From Intrasporangiaceae bacterium URHB0013 (GTDB taxonomy: Bacteria; Actinomycetota; Actinomycetes; Actinomycetales; Dermatophilaceae): a stretch of DNA of 64,000 nucleotides. Position 1 is the first letter of the stretch; each line of letters opens with the position of its first letter. Shown in pieces: positions 14,122-29,134 of the stretch. The stretch covers positions 310,001 to 374,000 of the forward strand of contig JIBA01000012.1 in assembly GCA_000620545.1 (NCBI GenBank), read 5' to 3'. The position numbers and the translations under genes are program-made. The notes below the pieces were generated by a model, which saw nothing but the letters and a program-made list of their open reading frames with translations, was not told the DNA's origin and did no database searches.

Positions 14122-17439
<3,318 letters not shown>

Positions 17440-18136
17440 TCAGGTCGTCTTCACGCCGCCCGAGGTGCCGGAGCTCGAGTCGTCCTGGCTCGGGTCCTGC
17501 CCGGTGTCGTCCGAGAACGGGTCGACGCCCTGACCGAGCAGCTGGAGGAGGTCCTGCGGGTCGAGCTGGCCCAGCTGGTTCGGGTCGATCCCGTTCAGCC
17601 CGCCGCCGGGCGCGCCGTTCGGCAGGTTCGGCAGCTGTTGGGGGCTCGTGCCCTGCTGACCCTGCTGACCCTGCTGACCCTGCTGACCCTGCTGGCCACC
17701 GGGGGAACGGGAAGCTGCGGCCGCCGCCCGGACCGCGGACGCCCGTGTCGCCGCCGGTGGACCCGGCCGGCATCGCGGCCGCGGCGCCGATGGCGCCTGC
17801 CGACGTGAGCAGGAGCGCGAGCCCGGCGGTCAGGGCGGTCTTCTTCGCGTTCCACCGGGCGCCGTCACCGGTCTCGGCACCCGCCGGCTTCTGGCGAACC
17901 GGCAGCCCGGTGGGGGAGAGCGGCACGTCGGGACCGGCGAGCGGGGTCGCCGGACCCGACGGCGCGGCATACGCGTAGGGGGTGGCGGGCGGCGTCACCG
18001 GGATGGCCGACGTCGCCACGGACGGGAGCTGCTGGGTGTCCTCGACGGTGGGATGGGCGGGCGCGTTCGGGTCGAACTGCGGCAGCCCGGACGTCGGTGG
18101 CGCGGCCGGGACCTGTGGCGTGGACTCGTTGCTCAT
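17440..18136 (-). CDS. Membrane-anchored Pro-rich protein with GQQ repeats; apparent 1-nt frameshift
   Basis: From ATG 18136 the frame gives a Pro/Thr-rich cytoplasmic arm, then KKTALTAGLALLLTSAGAIGAAAAMPAG as a single membrane anchor, then GGRSFPFP. A run of five C (minus strand, about 17701-17705) follows. Reading on without change gives SAGSAGSAG and a long Arg-rich tail antisense to the kinase. Removing one C gives PGGQQGQQGQQGQQGQQGTS, then LNGIDPNQLGQLDPQDLLQLLG and an acidic/Ser end stopping at 17440, one base from the kinase stop. The second reading looks like real protein, so I annotate it with a frameshift, true or sequencing. A PhoP-box-like promoter lies directly upstream (18158-18175). 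Function unknown. Confidence 0.7.
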
Positions 18137-18157
18137 GGGGCAACCGTCGGGCGACCG

Positions 18158-18175
18158 GCTGTGCGAGTGCTGTGC
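18158..18175 (-). promoter_or_regulatory. PhoP-box-like direct repeat upstream of the GQQ-repeat gene
   Basis: On the minus strand the site reads GCACAGC-ACTC-GCACAGC, two perfect heptamers with a 4-bp spacer. The known mycobacterial PhoP box is TCACAGC-N4-TCACAGC. The box ends exactly 21 nt before the ATG at 18136, and GACGGT lies at -12 to -7 of that ATG, fitting a leaderless promoter with an activator site over the -35 region. Confidence 0.75.
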
Positions 18176-18202
18176 CGGAGCCGTCGAGGCGCTGGGTCTT
18201 CG

Positions 18203-18253
18203 GGACAGATGCTCCACAGGAATCGCACAGGGAGGTACTGGTCTCGGCACAGG
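18203..18253 (+). promoter_or_regulatory. Four in-phase PhoP-box-like heptamers upstream of the response-regulator gene
   Basis: Heptamers GGACAGA (18203), CCACAGG (18214) and GCACAGG (18225) follow each other with 4-bp spacers, an 11-bp period. A fourth, GCACAGG, lies at 18247, two periods further on. The last ends 22 nt before ATG 18276. TTCACT at 18263-18268 would serve as the -10 element of a leaderless transcript. The arrangement suggests autoregulation by the OmpR/PhoP-type protein encoded downstream. Confidence 0.72.
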
Positions 18254-18275
18254 CCCAGGGGTTTCACTGGATGAC

Positions 18276-19013
18276 ATGAGCGAGAAGACCAAGCCCGCAG
18301 CGGCGCGACTCCAGCGACTCGACGGCTCCCCGGTGCGGGTGCTCGTCGTCGACGACGAGGCCAACCTCACCGAGCTGCTCGGCATGGCCCTGCGCTACGA
18401 GGGCTGGGAGGTGCGCGCCGCCGGCACCGGCATGGAGGCCGTGCGCGCTGCCCGTGAGTTCGACCCCGACGCGGTCGTGCTCGACATGATGCTCCCCGAC
18501 TTCGACGGCCTCGAGGTGCTGCGACGCATGCGCGCCGACAACAGCAACGTGCCGGTGCTCTTCCTCACGGCCAAGGACGCCGTCGAGGACCGCGTCTCGG
18601 GCCTGACCGCCGGCGGCGACGACTACGTCACCAAGCCCTTCTCCCTCGAGGAGGTCGTCGCCCGGGTCCGCGCGCTGATGCGCCGCACGACGATCGCCGT
18701 GTCGTCCTCCGACTCCGTCCTGGTCGTCGGAGATCTCACCCTCGACGAGGACAGCCACGAGGTGATGCGCGGCAGCGAGGAGATCCACCTCACCGCGACG
18801 GAGTTCGAGCTGCTGCGCTACCTCATGCGCAATCCGAAGCGCGTGCTGTCCAAGGCGCAGATCCTCGACCGCGTGTGGAACTACGACTTCGGTGGCCAGG
18901 CCAACGTCGTCGAGCTCTACATCTCCTACCTGCGCAAGAAGATCGACGCCGGACGGGAGCCGATGATCCACACCATGCGAGGAGCTGGGTATGTCCTCAA
19001 GCCGGCCGCCTGA
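18276..19013 (+). CDS. PhoP-like OmpR-family response regulator
   Basis: The 245-residue protein has a receiver domain (RVLVVDDEANLTELLGMAL, phospho-acceptor Asp70 in VVLDMMLPD, Lys in GGDDYVTKPFSLEEVVARVR). A winged-helix trans_reg_C domain follows, ending LRKKID ... HTMRGAGYVLKPAA. Over VLVVDDEAN, GGDDYVTKPFSLEEVVAR and VW-YDFGG-NVVE it follows M. tuberculosis PhoP closely, closer than generic OmpR proteins. It is cotranscribed with its kinase (23-nt overlap). ATG 18276 is used; another ATG at 18271 is out of frame. The PhoP-box-like repeats here and before 18136, 20898 and 28841 suggest its regulon. Confidence 0.9.
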   Translation: MSEKTKPAAARLQRLDGSPVRVLVVDDEANLTELLGMALRYEGWEVRAAGTGMEAVRAAREFDPDAVVLDMMLPDFDGLEVLRRMRADNSNVPVLFLTAKDAVEDRVSGLTAGGDDYVTKPFSLEEVVARVRALMRRTTIAVSSSDSVLVVGDLTLDEDSHEVMRGSEEIHLTATEFELLRYLMRNPKRVLSKAQILDRVWNYDFGGQANVVELYISYLRKKIDAGREPMIHTMRGAGYVLKPAA

Positions 19014-20718
19014 GACCGGCACCGAGCTGCCGGATCGCGCGGACCTGCCCGACGACGACGGCGCGAGCGCGCCCGGCTTCCCCCAGGGCGTCGGCTTCGT
19101 CGACGACGAGTCCGAGGACGGCACGAGCGCGTATGCCGTGTCGGCGCCTCCCCCGGCCACGGCGCAGTCCGCTCCCGGACAGGAGCGCGACGCGGATGAC
19201 TCGGCGTCGCTCGGCCGGCGACTCGCCGATGCGCGGAGCCGGGTCCGGCCGTGGTCGGCCTGGACGCTGCGCGCCAAGCTCGTCGCCTCGATGCTCGCCC
19301 TCTTCACCGTGCTCAGCCTCGCCACCGGCGCCTTCACCGTCGTCGCCCTCGACCGGCAGCTGACGGGTCAGGTCGACGACCAGCTGCGCACGTCGGTCGC
19401 GCAGATGGTCAACGGCCGACCCTTCGACTCCGGGCTCGACGCCGGCGTGAGTGATGGCCCCAGGGGGCCCGGCGACGAGGGTCTCGTCGCGTTCCTCCCG
19501 ACGACGCCGTCGGCCGACGTTCCCACCGCGAGCGGGGTCGCCTCGTCCGCCGGCCGCCAGCGGGTGCGTCTGTCGACGACCCAGCTGGCCCAGCTCAGCT
19601 CGGCAGGGCTGGGACCGCAGCCCAGCACGGTCACCATCGACGGTCTCGGGCCCTACCGGCTCGTGGCGGCGGCGGGCTCTCTCATCAACCGCCAGGCACG
19701 CACCGCCACGAACGGCACGTTCGTCGTCGGTCTGCAGATGGCGCAGCAGCAGCGCACCGTGCAGCAGATGGCGATCCTCGCGATCAGCACCGTGGCCGCG
19801 GGCATCATCCTCGTGGCCCTGCTCGGGACGTGGCTCGTGCGCCGCAACCTCGAGCCGCTCCGGCGCCTCGCCGCGACGGCGACGAAGGTCTCGCAGACAC
19901 CGCTCGACTCCGGCAAGGTCGCCCTCGCCGAGCGGGTCGACCCCGCAGACACCGACACGCGTACCGAGGTCGGGCAGGTCGGGGCCGCCTTCAACGAGAT
20001 GCTCGACCACGTCGACGAGGCACTCAACGCGCGACACCAGAGCGAGCAGCGGGTGCGGCAGTTCGTCGCCGACGCCTCGCACGAGCTGCGGACGCCGCTC
20101 GCCTCCATCAAGGGGTACGCCGAGCTGTCGCGTCGCGAGCCGGAGCCCGTGCCTCCCACGGTGACCCACGCGATGGGCCGTATCGAGTCGGAGGCCAACC
20201 GGATGAGCTCGCTCGTCGAGGACCTGCTCCTGCTCGCACGCCTCGACGCAGGCCGCCCGCTCCAGGAGGGGCCGGTCGACATGTCGATGCTCGTCATCAA
20301 TGCGGTGAGCGACGCGCACGCTGCCTCGCCCGGTCACCGGTGGGACCTCGACCTGCCACCAGAGCCCGTCGAGGTGACCGGAGACGGTGCCCGACTGCAC
20401 CAGGTGGTGGCCAACCTCCTGGCCAACGCACGGACGCACACCCCCGACGGCACGCGCGTCACGACGTCGGTGCGCCCCGAGGGTGAGTGGGTACGAGTGG
20501 CCGTCCACGACGACGGACCCGGTGTGCCGGAGAGCTTGCAGCCCAACGTCTTCGAGCGCTTCGCCCGTGGTGACGACGCCCGCGTGCGAGCCGGCGGGAG
20601 CACCGGCCTCGGGCTCTCGATCGTCGCGGCCGTGAGCAAGGCCCACGGGGGACGGGTCGAGCTCGACAGCCGTCCCGGCGACACGACCTTCAGCCTGCTC
20701 CTGCCCGCTGCCCCCTGA
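18991..20718 (+). CDS. PhoR-like membrane sensor histidine kinase
   Basis: A 575-residue kinase. An acidic, Pro-rich N-terminal cytoplasmic tail of about 85 residues precedes TM1 (KLVASMLALFTVLSLATGAFTVV), an extracytoplasmic sensor domain of about 150 residues, TM2 (ILAISTVAAGIILVALLGTW), and HAMP. HisKA has DASHELRTPLASIKGYAE with His364. The ATPase has NLLANARTHTP, HDDGPGVP and GSTGLGLSI. It starts at ATG 18991, preceded by AGGAG 8 nt upstream inside the regulator gene, so translation is coupled. Its partner is the PhoP-like regulator. The sensed signal is unknown, but the sensor loop faces the envelope. A strong hairpin terminator follows. Confidence 0.92.
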   Translation: MSSSRPPETGTELPDRADLPDDDGASAPGFPQGVGFVDDESEDGTSAYAVSAPPPATAQSAPGQERDADDSASLGRRLADARSRVRPWSAWTLRAKLVASMLALFTVLSLATGAFTVVALDRQLTGQVDDQLRTSVAQMVNGRPFDSGLDAGVSDGPRGPGDEGLVAFLPTTPSADVPTASGVASSAGRQRVRLSTTQLAQLSSAGLGPQPSTVTIDGLGPYRLVAAAGSLINRQARTATNGTFVVGLQMAQQQRTVQQMAILAISTVAAGIILVALLGTWLVRRNLEPLRRLAATATKVSQTPLDSGKVALAERVDPADTDTRTEVGQVGAAFNEMLDHVDEALNARHQSEQRVRQFVADASHELRTPLASIKGYAELSRREPEPVPPTVTHAMGRIESEANRMSSLVEDLLLLARLDAGRPLQEGPVDMSMLVINAVSDAHAASPGHRWDLDLPPEPVEVTGDGARLHQVVANLLANARTHTPDGTRVTTSVRPEGEWVRVAVHDDGPGVPESLQPNVFERFARGDDARVRAGGSTGLGLSIVAAVSKAHGGRVELDSRPGDTTFSLLLPAAP

Positions 20719-20794: not shown

Positions 20795-20858
20795 TCGGTG
20801 CAGCCGGCCGCACCGGACCGGAGCCGACGAGGACTCTCATCAGCCCGCCCCAGTCGCG

Positions 20859-20897
20859 TCATAGCAAGCGCACAGACCCCGGTTCGACGGTAGGGGC
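20859..20897 (+). promoter_or_regulatory. PhoP-box-like leaderless promoter of the membrane glycosyltransferase gene
   Basis: TCATAGC (20859) and GCACAGA (20870) form a 7-4-7 direct repeat; a weaker third copy, CCCCAGT, lies at 20848. The box ends 21 nt before ATG 20898, and GACGGT occupies -12 to -7. The 18 bases GTAGGGGCATGGACACGA spanning the start are identical to those at the start of the gene at 28841. Confidence 0.7.
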
Positions 20898-22976
20898 ATG
20901 GACACGATGACCCTCACCACCACGGGAACCGGCCCGGCGGGCAGCAGCGCACCGGCGCCCGCAGGGCCGGGCGACCCCGGACCCCGGACCATGCAGCCGC
21001 CCGTCGAACGAACGGGTCGTCCGGGTCGGCTCCAGCGCCTCTGGCGCGGTGCCGACGTGGACCCGCCGTGGGCTCGCCCGGCTCTCCTGGTCGTGCTGCT
21101 CGTCACGCTCGTGCTCTACACGTGGAACCTCACCGCGAGCGGCTACGCCAACTCGTTCTACTCCGCCGCGGTGCAGGCCGGGAGCGAGAGCTGGAAGGCC
21201 TTCTTCTTCGGCAGCTCCGACGCCGCGAGCTCGATCACCGTCGACAAGCCTCCGGCCTCCCTCTGGGTGATGGCCCTGTCGGTGCGGGTCCTCGGCCTCA
21301 GCTCCTTCGCGATCCTGCTGCCGCAGGCCCTCATGGGCGTCGCGACGGTCGGTGTCGTGTTCACGACCCTCAAGCGCCACTTCGGCGCGGCGGCGGGCCT
21401 CATCGCCGGCGTCGTCGTCGCGCTGACACCGGTCGCGGCGCTCATGTTCACCTTCAACAACCCCGACGCGCTCCTGACGCTCCTCATGGCGCTGGGCGCG
21501 TGGGCCACGATGAAGGCCATCGAGCAGGCCTCGCCCAGGTGGATGGTGATCGTCGGTGTCCTCATCGGCCTCGGCTTCCTCACCAAGACCCTCCAGGTCC
21601 TCCTCGTCGTGCCCTTCTTCGGCCTGGCCTACCTCGTCGCGGCTCCGACGACCCTGCGAAGGCGCATCGTCCACTCGCTCCTCGCCGTTGCTGCGATGGT
21701 GCTGTCGGCGGGGTGGTGGGTCGCGATCGTCGAGCTCATCCCGGCCTCGGCGCGCCCGTACATCGGTGGCAGCCAGACCAACTCGTTCCTCGAGCTGACC
21801 TTCGGCTACAACGGCCTGGGTCGCCTCAACGGGGACGAGACCGGCTCGGTGGGTGGCGGCGCCGCCGCCGGTGGCGGTACCTGGGGGTCGACCGGCCTCC
21901 TCCGGATGTTCTCCTCCAGCGTCGGGGACCAGGTCTCGTGGCTCATCCCGAGTGCCCTCATCCTGCTGGCGGCCGGGCTCTGGCTCCGCGGCCGTCGCCC
22001 GCGCACCGACCTGCGCCGTGCCGCCTACCTCGTGTGGGGCGGCTGGCTCGTCGTGACGATGCTCGTCTTCTCCTTCATGGCCGGCATCTTCCACGAGTAC
22101 TACACCGTGGCGCTCGCCCCCGCGATCGGCGCCGTCGTCGGCATGGGCGCGGTCGAGGCCTGGCAGCGTCGCTCCGGCGCGGTCGGCGCGATCATCCTCG
22201 CCGCGGCGACCGCCGCGGCAGCGACGTGGGGCTTCATCCTCCTCTCCCGCACGACCGCCTACGGCGACTGGCTGCGTATCTCGGTGCTCGCGGTCGGCAT
22301 GGCCGCGGCGCTGCTCGTCCTCGCGACCCGCTGGATGCACGCCCGGGCCGTCCCGTTCGTCCTCGCAGCGGCGCTCGTTGCCGGGCTTGCCGGCCCCGGC
22401 ACGTATGCCGTGTCGACGACGGCACAGGGCCACAGCGGCTCGATCGTGACCGCCGGCCCCGCGGGCTCGAGCCGTGGTCCCGGTGGCAGGGGCGGCACCC
22501 CACCGCAGGTGCCGGGCCAGACGGGCACCAACGGGACGACGCAGCAGGGCGCCACGGGCCCCGTGCCGGGGGCACCGCAGACGGGCGGCGCCGGTGGCGG
22601 CATGGGCGGTCTGCTCGACGCCTCGGCTCCGAGCACCGCGGTCGTCGCGGCCCTCTCGGCGGACGCCGACCGCTACACGTGGGTTGCCGCGGCGGTCGGC
22701 TCGCAGACGGCGGCCGGTCTCCAGCTCGGCACGCAGCTCCCGATCATGGCCATCGGCGGCTTCAACGGGTCGGACCCGAGCCCGACGCTCGCGCAGTTCC
22801 AGCAGTACGTCGCAGCCGGGCAGGTGCACTACTTCGCCGGCGGGGGAAGGGGTTTCGGCAACCAGAACGGTGGCAGCAGCGCCTCGTCGGAGATCAGCTC
22901 ATGGGTTCAGGAGAACTTCACCGCCGTGACGATCGACGGCTCGACGTTCTACGACCTGACGCAGCCTCTCCAGTGA
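20898..22976 (+). CDS. GT39/ArnT-like polytopic membrane glycosyltransferase
   Basis: The 692-residue protein has a Pro/Gly-rich cytoplasmic start and then about a dozen transmembrane helices. The first periplasmic loop shows YANSFYSAAVQAGSESWKAF and SSITVDKPPASLWVMALS, the D-x-KPP motif of the GT-C fold PMT/ArnT-type enzymes that use polyprenyl-phosphate sugars. TFNNPDALLTLLMALGAW is also typical. The C-terminal about 180 residues are extracytoplasmic, with a Gly-rich linker and a globular part ending GSTFYDLTQPLQ. Homologs are annotated YkcB or mannosyl-transferases. The next gene, GtrA, overlaps it. The acceptor is unknown; envelope glycosylation is inferred. ATG 20898 is supported by the promoter spacing; ATG 20907 is an alternative. 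Confidence 0.87.
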   Translation: MDTMTLTTTGTGPAGSSAPAPAGPGDPGPRTMQPPVERTGRPGRLQRLWRGADVDPPWARPALLVVLLVTLVLYTWNLTASGYANSFYSAAVQAGSESWKAFFFGSSDAASSITVDKPPASLWVMALSVRVLGLSSFAILLPQALMGVATVGVVFTTLKRHFGAAAGLIAGVVVALTPVAALMFTFNNPDALLTLLMALGAWATMKAIEQASPRWMVIVGVLIGLGFLTKTLQVLLVVPFFGLAYLVAAPTTLRRRIVHSLLAVAAMVLSAGWWVAIVELIPASARPYIGGSQTNSFLELTFGYNGLGRLNGDETGSVGGGAAAGGGTWGSTGLLRMFSSSVGDQVSWLIPSALILLAAGLWLRGRRPRTDLRRAAYLVWGGWLVVTMLVFSFMAGIFHEYYTVALAPAIGAVVGMGAVEAWQRRSGAVGAIILAAATAAAATWGFILLSRTTAYGDWLRISVLAVGMAAALLVLATRWMHARAVPFVLAAALVAGLAGPGTYAVSTTAQGHSGSIVTAGPAGSSRGPGGRGGTPPQVPGQTGTNGTTQQGATGPVPGAPQTGGAGGGMGGLLDASAPSTAVVAALSADADRYTWVAAAVGSQTAAGLQLGTQLPIMAIGGFNGSDPSPTLAQFQQYVAAGQVHYFAGGGRGFGNQNGGSSASSEISSWVQENFTAVTIDGSTFYDLTQPLQ

Positions 22977-23500
22977 CGACCATGTCGGTCTCCACGTCGG
23001 TGGCGCGAATCCGCCTCTCCCAACAACTCATCCGCTTCGCCGGCGTGGGAGTGCTCTCCACCGCCCTGCACCTCGGCCTCTTCGCGGGCCTGGTGCGGGG
23101 CGGTGCCCCGTCCCAGCTGGCCAACGGCGTGTCCCTCGTCATCGCGACAGTCCTCAACACAGGGCTCAACCGGGCGTGGACGTTCGGGGTCTCGGGTCGC
23201 CGCAACCTCGTGGCGCACCATGGCCAGGCGCTCGTCATCTTCGCCATCACGTATGCCGCCACGACCGTTGCGCTCGCGGTGCTCGGTGCGCTGGCCCCCA
23301 GCGCCGGGACGCTCGTGCAGACCCTCGTCGTCGCGGTGGCCAACGTGCTGTCGACCGCCCTCCGGTTCGTCGCGATGCGTCGCTGGATCTTCCGCGCGCC
23401 GGCAGTCACCACCACCGGCCCGGCCAGCGGACCGACGGACGGCCACGACACGGCATACGCCGGCGATGGTGCGCTGGTCCGCCCGCGGGGAGAGCCGTGA
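22973..23500 (+). CDS. GtrA-family membrane protein
   Basis: A 175-residue protein with four transmembrane helices. LIRFAGVGVLSTALHLGLFAGLVRGG and ANGVSLVIATVLNTGLNRAWTFG are the classic GtrA signature, followed by two more helices and RFVAMRRWIFRA. GtrA proteins are thought to help flip or deliver polyprenyl-phosphate-linked sugars, which fits the adjacent GT-C glycosyltransferase. The GTG at 22973 overlaps the previous stop as GTGA; ATG 22982 in the same frame is an equally possible start. The C-terminal 40 residues are a polar tail unlike the rest of the family. Confidence 0.88.
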   Translation: MTTMSVSTSVARIRLSQQLIRFAGVGVLSTALHLGLFAGLVRGGAPSQLANGVSLVIATVLNTGLNRAWTFGVSGRRNLVAHHGQALVIFAITYAATTVALAVLGALAPSAGTLVQTLVVAVANVLSTALRFVAMRRWIFRAPAVTTTGPASGPTDGHDTAYAGDGALVRPRGEP

Positions 23501-28801: not shown

Positions 28802-28840
28802 CCACAGATGCCCCACAGGCGCAGACGCGACCGTAGGGGC
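28802..28840 (+). promoter_or_regulatory. PhoP-box-like leaderless promoter of the small secreted-peptide gene
   Basis: CCACAGA (28802) and CCACAGG (28813) form a 7-4-7 direct repeat ending exactly 21 nt before ATG 28841. GACCGT lies at -12 to -7. The block ACAGATGCCCCACAGG differs at one base from the repeat at 18205-18220 before the response-regulator gene, and the start region matches that at 20898. Confidence 0.72.
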
Positions 28841-29134
28841 ATGGACACGACACCCCGCCCCGGACACGTCCCTTCGACCTTTCGCTCCACGCTGCGTCGT
28901 GGCCTCGGCGCCGCAGGCGCTGCAGTGGCCGTCGCGTTCGTCGGCACCACGGCCCTCGGGGCCGGGCAGGCCCACGCGGCAGGCGTCGCCGGTGGCCTGA
29001 CGCCCGTGCACACTGCCGGCGAGCCCGCCCCGCGCCCGCACCCCCACCATGCGGCGCACCCGGCCAACCTGCCGGCGGCGACGACGACGGCCTACCGCTA
29101 CTCGTTCCGTGACGGGCAGCTCATCCGCCTCTGA
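28841..29134 (+). CDS. Small secreted His/Pro-rich peptide of unknown function
   Basis: A 97-residue protein with an Arg-containing n-region, the hydrophobic core LGAAGAAVAVAFVGTTALGAG and a likely signal-peptidase site after QAHAA. The mature product of about 50 residues contains PAPRPHPHHAAHP and ends YRYSFRDGQLIRL. I recognise no domain. It has no ribosome-binding site but a GACCGT -10-like hexamer at the position expected for a leaderless transcript. Its promoter copies that of the glycosyltransferase at 20898. It is convergent with the flavoprotein gene at 29171. Confidence 0.72.
   Translation: MDTTPRPGHVPSTFRSTLRRGLGAAGAAVAVAFVGTTALGAGQAHAAGVAGGLTPVHTAGEPAPRPHPHHAAHPANLPAATTTAYRYSFRDGQLIRL

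What the first reader, a model, noticed from the sequence alone, without database searches (positions are those of the whole stretch)
18158..18275. PhoP-box-like repeats drive both sides of a divergent region at a PhoP-like two-component system
On the minus strand, GCACAGC-ACTC-GCACAGC ends 21 nt before the GQQ-repeat gene. On the plus strand, heptamers with ACAG core at 18205, 18216, 18227 and 18249 share one 11-bp phase and end 22 nt before the response-regulator ATG. The known M. tuberculosis PhoP box is TCACAGC-N4-TCACAGC, and the encoded regulator resembles PhoP. So the regulator probably controls itself and its divergent neighbour, both as leaderless transcripts. I know of no description of such a system outside mycobacteria with this gene set.
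Basis: partly seen in the sequence, partly recalled or inferred. Interest (0 to 1): 0.8.

Follow-up and report, generated by a model that had tools for sequence, protein, structure and literature searches.

The report
A self-controlling switch's shared DNA address
A soil bacterium's sensor-regulator pair appears to switch on its own genes, its neighbour and a few other genes through a repeated 11-base DNA address placed at a fixed distance from start codons that seem to double as transcription starts, and the regulator is the counterpart of tuberculosis TcrX rather than of PhoP.

Summary
Four ACAG cores share one 11-bp phase on the plus strand (0 of 20,000 shuffles do), and a 7-4-7 repeat faces the divergent gene. 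It is conserved: of 106 distinct loci with relatives of this regulator, 79 carry CACAG-N6-CACAG upstream, against 34 of 11,024 control blocks. Start codons sit in one helical phase to the box in 74 of 88 promoters, and further phased elements and a -10-like hexamer, 6-7 nt before the start codon, emerge without being selected for. Autoregulation, control of the neighbour and leaderless starts are thus well supported by comparison; none was measured.

The identity needs correction. The regulator is the reciprocal best match of the mycobacterial regulator beside lpqH (TcrX type), not of PhoP; another Terrabacter regulator lies in the PhoP clade. The same promoter design precedes a YkcB-like glycosyltransferase, a 97-aa secreted protein (both in the window) and a ferric-reductase-like protein. 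The bare box is not enriched over the genus's genomes: position makes it specific. A 2024 TcrX study reported no binding consensus; this comparison supplies a candidate.

The parts
18276..19013 (+). OmpR/PhoB-type response regulator, TcrX-type (245 aa)
   Evidence: Pfam Response_reg + Trans_reg_C; reciprocal best hit with the regulator beside lpqH in a mycobacterial genome, 71%; recognition helix NVVELYISYLRKKID
18991..20718 (+). Membrane sensor histidine kinase, TcrY-like, overlapping the end of the regulator gene
   Evidence: HAMP, HisKA, HATPase_c; 236 of 498 aligned positions (47%) identical to the kinase next to the mycobacterial TcrX-type regulator
18204..18252 (+). Phased array upstream of the regulator: GACAG 18204-18208, CACAG 18215-18219, CACAG 18226-18230, degenerate ACTGG 18237-18241, CACAG 18248-18252
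   Evidence: conserved in relatives
18263..18268 (+). -10-like hexamer TTCACT, 10 bp after the last CACAG and 7 nt before the ATG
   Evidence: T at the sixth position in 98% (weighted) of 59 aligned promoters
18158..18175 (-). Box GCACAGC-ACTC-GCACAGC for the divergent gene
   Evidence: a minus-strand CAYAG pair within 300 nt in 28 of 106 loci
18143..18148 (-). -10-like hexamer GACGGT of the divergent gene, 10 bp after the box core and 6 nt before its ATG
17440..18136 (-). Divergent gene: Pro-rich N-terminus, one hydrophobic segment, Gly/Gln-rich tail; frame broken by a C-run in this record
20860..20875 (+). Box CATAG-CAAGCG-CACAG of the glycosyltransferase gene, then 10 bp, GACGGT (20886-20891), 6 nt, ATG 20898
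   Evidence: same spacing in 8 of 8 Terrabacter genomes that have the locus
20898..22976 (+). YkcB-like membrane glycosyltransferase (PMT_2 + YkcB_C)
22946..23500 (+). GtrA-type membrane protein, possibly on the same transcript as the glycosyltransferase
   Evidence: Pfam GtrA; co-transcription inferred
28803..28818 (+). Box CACAG-ATGCCC-CACAG of the small secreted protein gene, then 10 bp, GACCGT (28829-28834), 6 nt, ATG 28841
   Evidence: found in 7 of 8 Terrabacter genomes
28841..29134 (+). 97-aa protein with a signal-like N-terminus (by eye), no Pfam family

Best explanation
This is a TcrXY-type two-component system with positive feedback. The membrane kinase phosphorylates the regulator. 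Regulator molecules then line up head to tail on CACAG elements spaced exactly 11 bp, about one per helical turn. The last element lies 10 bp upstream of a -10-like hexamer (NANNNT in most cases), where a -35 would be, so the bound regulator stands in for the -35 contact (class II activation). RNA polymerase starts on, or within a base of, the first base of the start codon, 6-7 nt after the hexamer, giving a leaderless message. The same design serves the regulator-kinase operon, the divergent envelope protein, the YkcB-like glycosyltransferase, the 97-aa protein and a distant ferric-reductase-like gene. Shown here: sequence, conservation, phase, spacing, orthology. Inferred: binding, activation rather than repression, exact start sites, the signal (acid or envelope stress by analogy with TcrXY) and the physiological role (envelope and redox adjustment).
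For: Counts on 106 distinct loci (one search gave nearly the same on 107 before two hidden duplicates were removed): CACAG-N6-CACAG in 79 against 34 of 11,024 control blocks, relaxed form in 103 against 50; pair distances 11, 22 and 33 make up 196 of 227. Start codon in phase 5 or 6 mod 11 in 74 of 88, exactly 49 or 50 nt from the core in 59 of 88. Unselected columns (elements at +11 and +22, hexamer) rise in the logo of those 59. Same design at other genes: glycosyltransferase 8 of 8, 97-aa gene 7 of 8, ferric-reductase-like gene 8 of 8 Terrabacter genomes and 4 of 6 loci fetched from other genera (read by eye). Own genome: box plus start codon 7 hits against 2 reversed controls, four sharing the hexamer. 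Five of the six base-contacting residues listed for Mtb PhoP are kept; position 216 is Leu, not Ser.
Against: No binding, expression or 5'-end data. The bare box is not enriched (115 against 104 in nine genomes; 79 against 91 in four mycobacterial genomes). The regulator's own hexamer TTCACT lacks A at position 2, as do 45% (weighted) of the aligned hexamers. 18 of 106 loci lack a CAYAG pair, 13 of them Streptomyces, where elements are degenerate (CTCAG), and no Streptomyces glycosyltransferase had a box. Of 29 loci with a minus-strand pair by a slightly wider pattern, 15 gave the 27/28-nt spacing under a first-ORF rule. Four genomes of other genera of the mycobacterial family gave only PhoP-type best hits, 53-55%. 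Repression by a box over the -35 region is not excluded.
Confidence: 0.83

Rival explanations
1. The array is bound by another OmpR-type regulator, above all the PhoP-clade paralogue of this genome, and the TcrX-type regulator is only a target.
For: The paralogue is 58% identical to the window regulator, its promoter has 11-bp phased repeats too, and the Mtb PhoP box (TCACAGC-N4-TCACAGC, passages of PMC4832192) fits the window box.
Against: Of 18 paralogue promoters read, 13 carry [CT]C[CA]AG pairs (10 of 10,026 control blocks) and 0 carry CAYAG pairs; of 106 TcrX-type loci 0 carry the [CT]C[CA]AG pair. The CACAG array follows the TcrX-type gene across families.
Confidence: 0.07
2. The regulator is an autorepressor: the box covers the -35 region and shuts the promoters until the signal arrives.
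For: The box overlaps where a -35 would lie; direction of control cannot be read from sequence.
Against: A repressor would need a promoter of its own under the box; a sigma-70 scan of 18000-18400 found none, though it finds none in shuffles either and so says little. PhoP sites over the -35 are read as class II activation (passages of PMC3413638), and mycobacterial tcrXY induction depends on TcrXY (passages of PMC10883919).
Confidence: 0.1
3. The messages have leaders; the fixed distance to the start codon reflects something other than a transcription start on it.
For: No 5' ends were measured; 14 of 88 promoters are out of phase.
Against: The start codon stays 6-7 nt after the hexamer across genes and genera, too short for a leader with a ribosome site.
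Confidence: 0.1

Closest known systems
TcrX/TcrY (Rv3765c/Rv3764c) of Mycobacterium tuberculosis, PMC10883919 (abstract, outline and passages seen)
   Same: Counterpart of the regulator and kinase by reciprocal best hit with the mycobacterial copy beside lpqH; autoregulation reported; small proline-rich effectors and a redox theme. The four mycobacterial genomes read carry a CACAG/CATAG array upstream, and two of four have a divergent membrane protein, one with a clear box.
   Different: The published site is a 7-bp mirror repeat, and the authors state that a genome-wide screen gave no obvious consensus. Here the site is a direct-repeat array tied to a -10-like hexamer and a start codon; candidate targets include a YkcB-like glycosyltransferase and a ferric-reductase-like protein.
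PhoP of M. tuberculosis and its 7-4-7 box, PMC4832192 (passages seen)
   Same: Direct repeat of CACAG heptamers with a 4-bp spacer; five of six base-contacting residues.
   Different: Different clade (100/100 support); position 216 Leu instead of Ser; the reported phoP autoregulatory repeats lie downstream of +1 (PMC3413638, passages), here upstream of the hexamer.
PHO boxes of Streptomyces PhoP and E. coli PhoB (as cited in PMC4832192)
   Same: 11-bp phased direct repeats bound by OmpR/PhoB-type regulators.
   Different: Heptamer sequence and regulator differ.

Membership tests
TcrX orthologue | Reciprocal best match with the mycobacterial TcrX | tested here: met
   Window RR finds it at 70-71% as best hit in 4 of 4 genomes of genus g54; in four genomes of other genera of that family the best hit is PhoP-type, 53-55%. 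One of the four (G137) was used for the way back: window RR first in G000, 71% against 56% for the next.
TcrX orthologue | Adjacent TcrY-type kinase | tested here: met
   47% identity over 498 aligned positions
TcrX orthologue | Autoregulation and response to acid | not testable with these tools
   Only the conserved array upstream of its own gene was seen
TcrX orthologue | Forms a clade with mycobacterial TcrX apart from PhoP | tested here: inconclusive
   Apart from the PhoP clade: yes, 100/100. TcrX-type rows form a grade, two Micromonosporaceae rows sit at the base of the PhoP clade, and long branches are flagged
PhoP (M. tuberculosis) orthologue | Lies in the PhoP clade | tested here: not met
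   the paralogue L123 lies with PhoP (61% to Mtb PhoP, window RR 56%)
PhoP (M. tuberculosis) orthologue | Base-contacting helix residues N212 V213 E215 S216 Y217 Y220 | tested here: inconclusive
   5 of 6 kept, S216 is Leu
OmpR/PhoB response regulator | Receiver plus winged-helix Trans_reg_C | tested here: met
OmpR/PhoB response regulator | Binds 11-bp phased direct repeats | tested here: inconclusive
   Repeats conserved; binding not testable here
Leaderless promoter | Transcription start at the start codon | tested here: inconclusive
   Fixed 6-7 nt from hexamer to start codon; no 5' ends

The most novel reading that the evidence does not exclude
The CACAG/CATAG direct-repeat array with a fixed -10 and leaderless start is the general operator of TcrX-type regulators in Actinomycetia, mycobacteria included. 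TcrX and PhoP of mycobacteria would share one heptamer and so be open to cross-regulation, while Terrabacter and its relatives have drawn their two sister systems apart (CACAG against CCCAG/TCCAG).
Probability: 0.5. Interest if true: 0.75.

Novelty: new variant of a known kind. Interest (0 to 1): 0.6.

Why it matters
It gives a testable binding site and regulon rule for a widespread actinomycete regulator whose tuberculosis member is reported as needed for persistent infection and as lacking an obvious consensus. It also offers a natural experiment in specificity: two sister regulators in one genome with two boxes that do not mix (0 of 106 and 0 of 18). And it shows start codons held to a promoter by a 6-7 nt rule over many genera, a clean comparative case for leaderless, activator-dependent promoters.

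Tried and rejected
PhoP orthology was rejected. A large regulon of the bare box was not supported: counts are near the reversed control in Terrabacter (own genome 14 against 6) and in four mycobacterial genomes. Of the seven own-genome hits with a start codon at the right distance, three were set aside as chance-like for lack of the hexamer (an HTH gene, an ATP synthase gamma-like gene, a short frame, names by eye). A sigma-70 scan found none, but expects none. No NCBIfam model among the best 25 listed reached its cut-off for the regulator. The divergent mycobacterial proteins match DUF5666 only below cut-off. The partial gene after the ferric-reductase-like gene looked like an FMN-binding protein by eye but matched no Pfam family. 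TcrX target genes in mycobacteria were not traced: of 79 box sites I looked only at those by tcrX and phoP. A simple one-residue rule for specificity (Asn212 with CACAG) was not borne out strictly: the paralogue L186 has Asn but a TCCAG pair, and 2 of 8 PhoP rows have Gly. Literature searches for a TcrX motif or this design; nothing beyond the papers named (seen as listings except the three cited). No structure was predicted.

Rows dropped: 4 of 110 loci as duplicates before the counts on 106 (searches used a set of 107 that still held two hidden duplicates and lacked one distinct locus); 18 of 106 without CAYAG pair before the phase count; 29 of 88 outside spacing 49/50 before the logo; six rows (one TcrX-type and five of six meant as outgroup) not extracted for the tree; three matches of 50-57% not fetched.

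Full report
What was claimed and what is there. The window lies in a Terrabacter-type genome (G000:C10:310001-374000; the nearest named records are Terrabacter and Intrasporangium flavum). Four ACAG cores at 18205, 18216, 18227 and 18249 share one 11-bp phase, which none of 20,000 dinucleotide shuffles reached; the minus-strand pair arose in 0.015% of them.

Is it conserved? Yes. I took 106 distinct loci (of 110 fetched) with relatives of the regulator. CACAG-N6-CACAG lies within 150 nt upstream in 79, the form with C or T at the third place in 88, and a relaxed form in 103; in other 150-nt blocks of the same loci, both strands, the counts are 34, 42 and 50 of 11,024 (one search gave nearly the same on a set with two hidden duplicates). 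Of 227 pair distances up to 60 nt, 110 are 11, 55 are 22 and 31 are 33. The 18 loci without the C/T form include 13 Streptomyces; those printed show CTCAG and CACAG elements in the same phase.

Position relative to the start codon. In 88 of the 106 loci a CAYAG pair and an in-frame start downstream were found by rule. In 74 of 88 the distance is in phase 5 or 6 of 11 (16 expected if uniform; relatives are not independent), and in 59 it is exactly 49 or 50 nt (rows). Aligned on the box, those 59 show elements at -11, 0, +11 and +22 and then a hexamer at +37 to +42 with T at its last place in 98% (weighted) and A at its second in 55%. The box pair and the start distance were selection criteria; the elements at +11 and +22 and the hexamer were not. 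The hexamer ends 6 or 7 nt before the start codon, the usual distance from a -10 to a transcription start (recalled). That is why I think the messages are leaderless; no 5' end was measured.

Other promoters with the same design. In the own genome CAYAG-N6-CACAG followed at 19-26 nt by RTG gave 7 hits against 2 for the reversed pattern. Four of them share CACAG, 10 bp, GA[CG][CG]GT, 6-7 nt, ATG: the divergent gene (ATG 18136), the YkcB-like glycosyltransferase (ATG 20898), the 97-aa protein (ATG 28841) and, elsewhere, a ferric-reductase-like protein. In the genus the glycosyltransferase box has the same 22-nt spacing in 8 of 8 genomes that have the locus (G002, 74% complete, does not show it) and the 97-aa gene in 7 of 8; in the eighth (L260) no pair was found in the stretch read. 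The ferric-reductase-like gene has it, read by eye, in 8 of 8 and in 4 of 6 loci fetched from other genera (L305, L306, L307, L310; not L308, L309). Of 80 named loci 42 have the glycosyltransferase; 22 of these gave a box with a start by a relaxed rule, 11 at 27 or 28 nt: ten Intrasporangiaceae and one MAG labelled Propionibacteriaceae. Two Knoellia rows count as 19 nt because of an upstream GTG; no Streptomyces row had a box there.

The divergent gene. By a slightly wider pattern 29 of 106 loci have a minus-strand pair within 330 nt; 15 give a start at 27 or 28 nt from the core. In the Intrasporangiaceae among these the proteins share a Pro-rich N-terminus, a Trp-containing, Lys/Arg-rich entry to one hydrophobic segment and, mostly, a Gly/Gln-rich tail; the Nocardioides ones differ in sequence (by eye). 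Several of the other 14 frames look spurious. In two of four mycobacterial loci the divergent gene encodes a membrane-anchored protein with a sub-threshold DUF5666 match; in L222 its promoter reads CACAG-N6-CACAG, 10 bp, CACCGT, 6 nt, ATG; in L221 the second element is CACAT.

Which regulator is it? But four genomes whose PhoP is 92-98% identical to that of Mtb hold a closer protein at 70-71%, against 56% for their PhoP; four genomes of other genera of that family do not. In L219 this protein is followed by a kinase, a 19-kDa lipoprotein (Myco_19_kDa, E 5e-37) and an alkyl sulfatase, the surroundings that I recall for tcrX-tcrY-lpqH. It finds the window regulator first in G000. A tree puts Mtb PhoP and the second Terrabacter regulator in one clade with support 100/100, without the window regulator; the TcrX-type rows themselves form a grade and long branches are flagged. 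A further mycobacterial group (257 aa in L223, near kdpA by eye) looks like TrcR by recall; one row that I labelled so (L199) falls with TcrX in the tree.

Specificity. PMC4832192 (passages) lists Asn212, Val213, Glu215, Ser216, Tyr217 and Tyr220 of PhoP as base contacts. TcrX-type proteins keep all but Ser216 (Leu), with Ile for Val213 in some. Of 18 PhoP-clade paralogues of this order, 17 have Gly, Ala or Ser for Asn212 and one (L186) keeps Asn. Their promoters carry [CT]C[CA]AG pairs in 13 of 18, against 10 of 10,026 control blocks, and CAYAG pairs in 0 of 18; the 106 TcrX-type loci carry the [CT]C[CA]AG pair in 0. So the two sister boxes do not mix. Which residue does it is open: L186 has Asn with a TCCAG pair, and 2 of 8 PhoP rows have Gly. 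In one mycobacterial genome a CACAG-GAATCT-CACAG stands just upstream of phoP itself (G059:C1:5278050).

What is against it. The bare box is not enriched: 115 against 104 reversed controls in nine Terrabacter genomes, 79 against 91 in four mycobacterial ones. Direction of control and signal are not readable. The regulator's own hexamer is weak. Outside Intrasporangiaceae the wider target set is largely unsupported.

Literature. PMC10883919 (abstract, outline and passages) describes TcrXY as autoregulated and acid-sensing, with a 7-bp mirror repeat as site, its second half overlapping the putative -10, and states that a genome-wide screen revealed no obvious binding consensus. I found no paper with this array (searches; most subscription papers are not held, and the 2011 paper on the mirror repeat was not seen). 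That the mirror repeat is a CATAG element plus the -10 read backwards is my inference; the H37Rv promoter was not examined.

Noticed in passing
window 17701-17705 (plus-strand G run): A run of five C on the coding strand of the divergent gene puts its GQQ-repeat tail out of frame; the three relatives in which the same search found the site have three or four. Sequencing error, pseudogene or a slippery run; a GIDPNQL-x-x-LDPQDLL stretch of the tail recurs in the Terrabacter relatives read.
   Followed up: partly
L123 (G000:C17:38295-38966): PhoP-clade paralogue with its own phased CCCAG pair and, by eye, the same 10-bp / hexamer / 6-nt / GTG layout; its helix has Gly where PhoP has Asn212.
   Followed up: partly
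G059:C1:5278050-5278065: A CACAG-N6-CACAG pair stands about 75 nt upstream of the phoP match in one mycobacterial genome, so PhoP and TcrX may share sites there.
   Followed up: no
window 14122-17439: A 1105-aa hybrid kinase (PAS, HisKA, HATPase, two receiver stretches, Hpt) ends head-on against the divergent gene.
   Followed up: no
L041, frame upstream of the regulator on the minus strand: In Phytohabitans a minus-strand box precedes a frame that resembles an ApbE-type flavin transferase by eye (no family search made).
   Followed up: no
window 20800-20860 and relatives L251-L257: Upstream of the glycosyltransferase box further degenerate elements (CAAAG or CCCAG, CATCA) keep the 11-bp phase in several rows, so the array may have more members.
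   Followed up: partly
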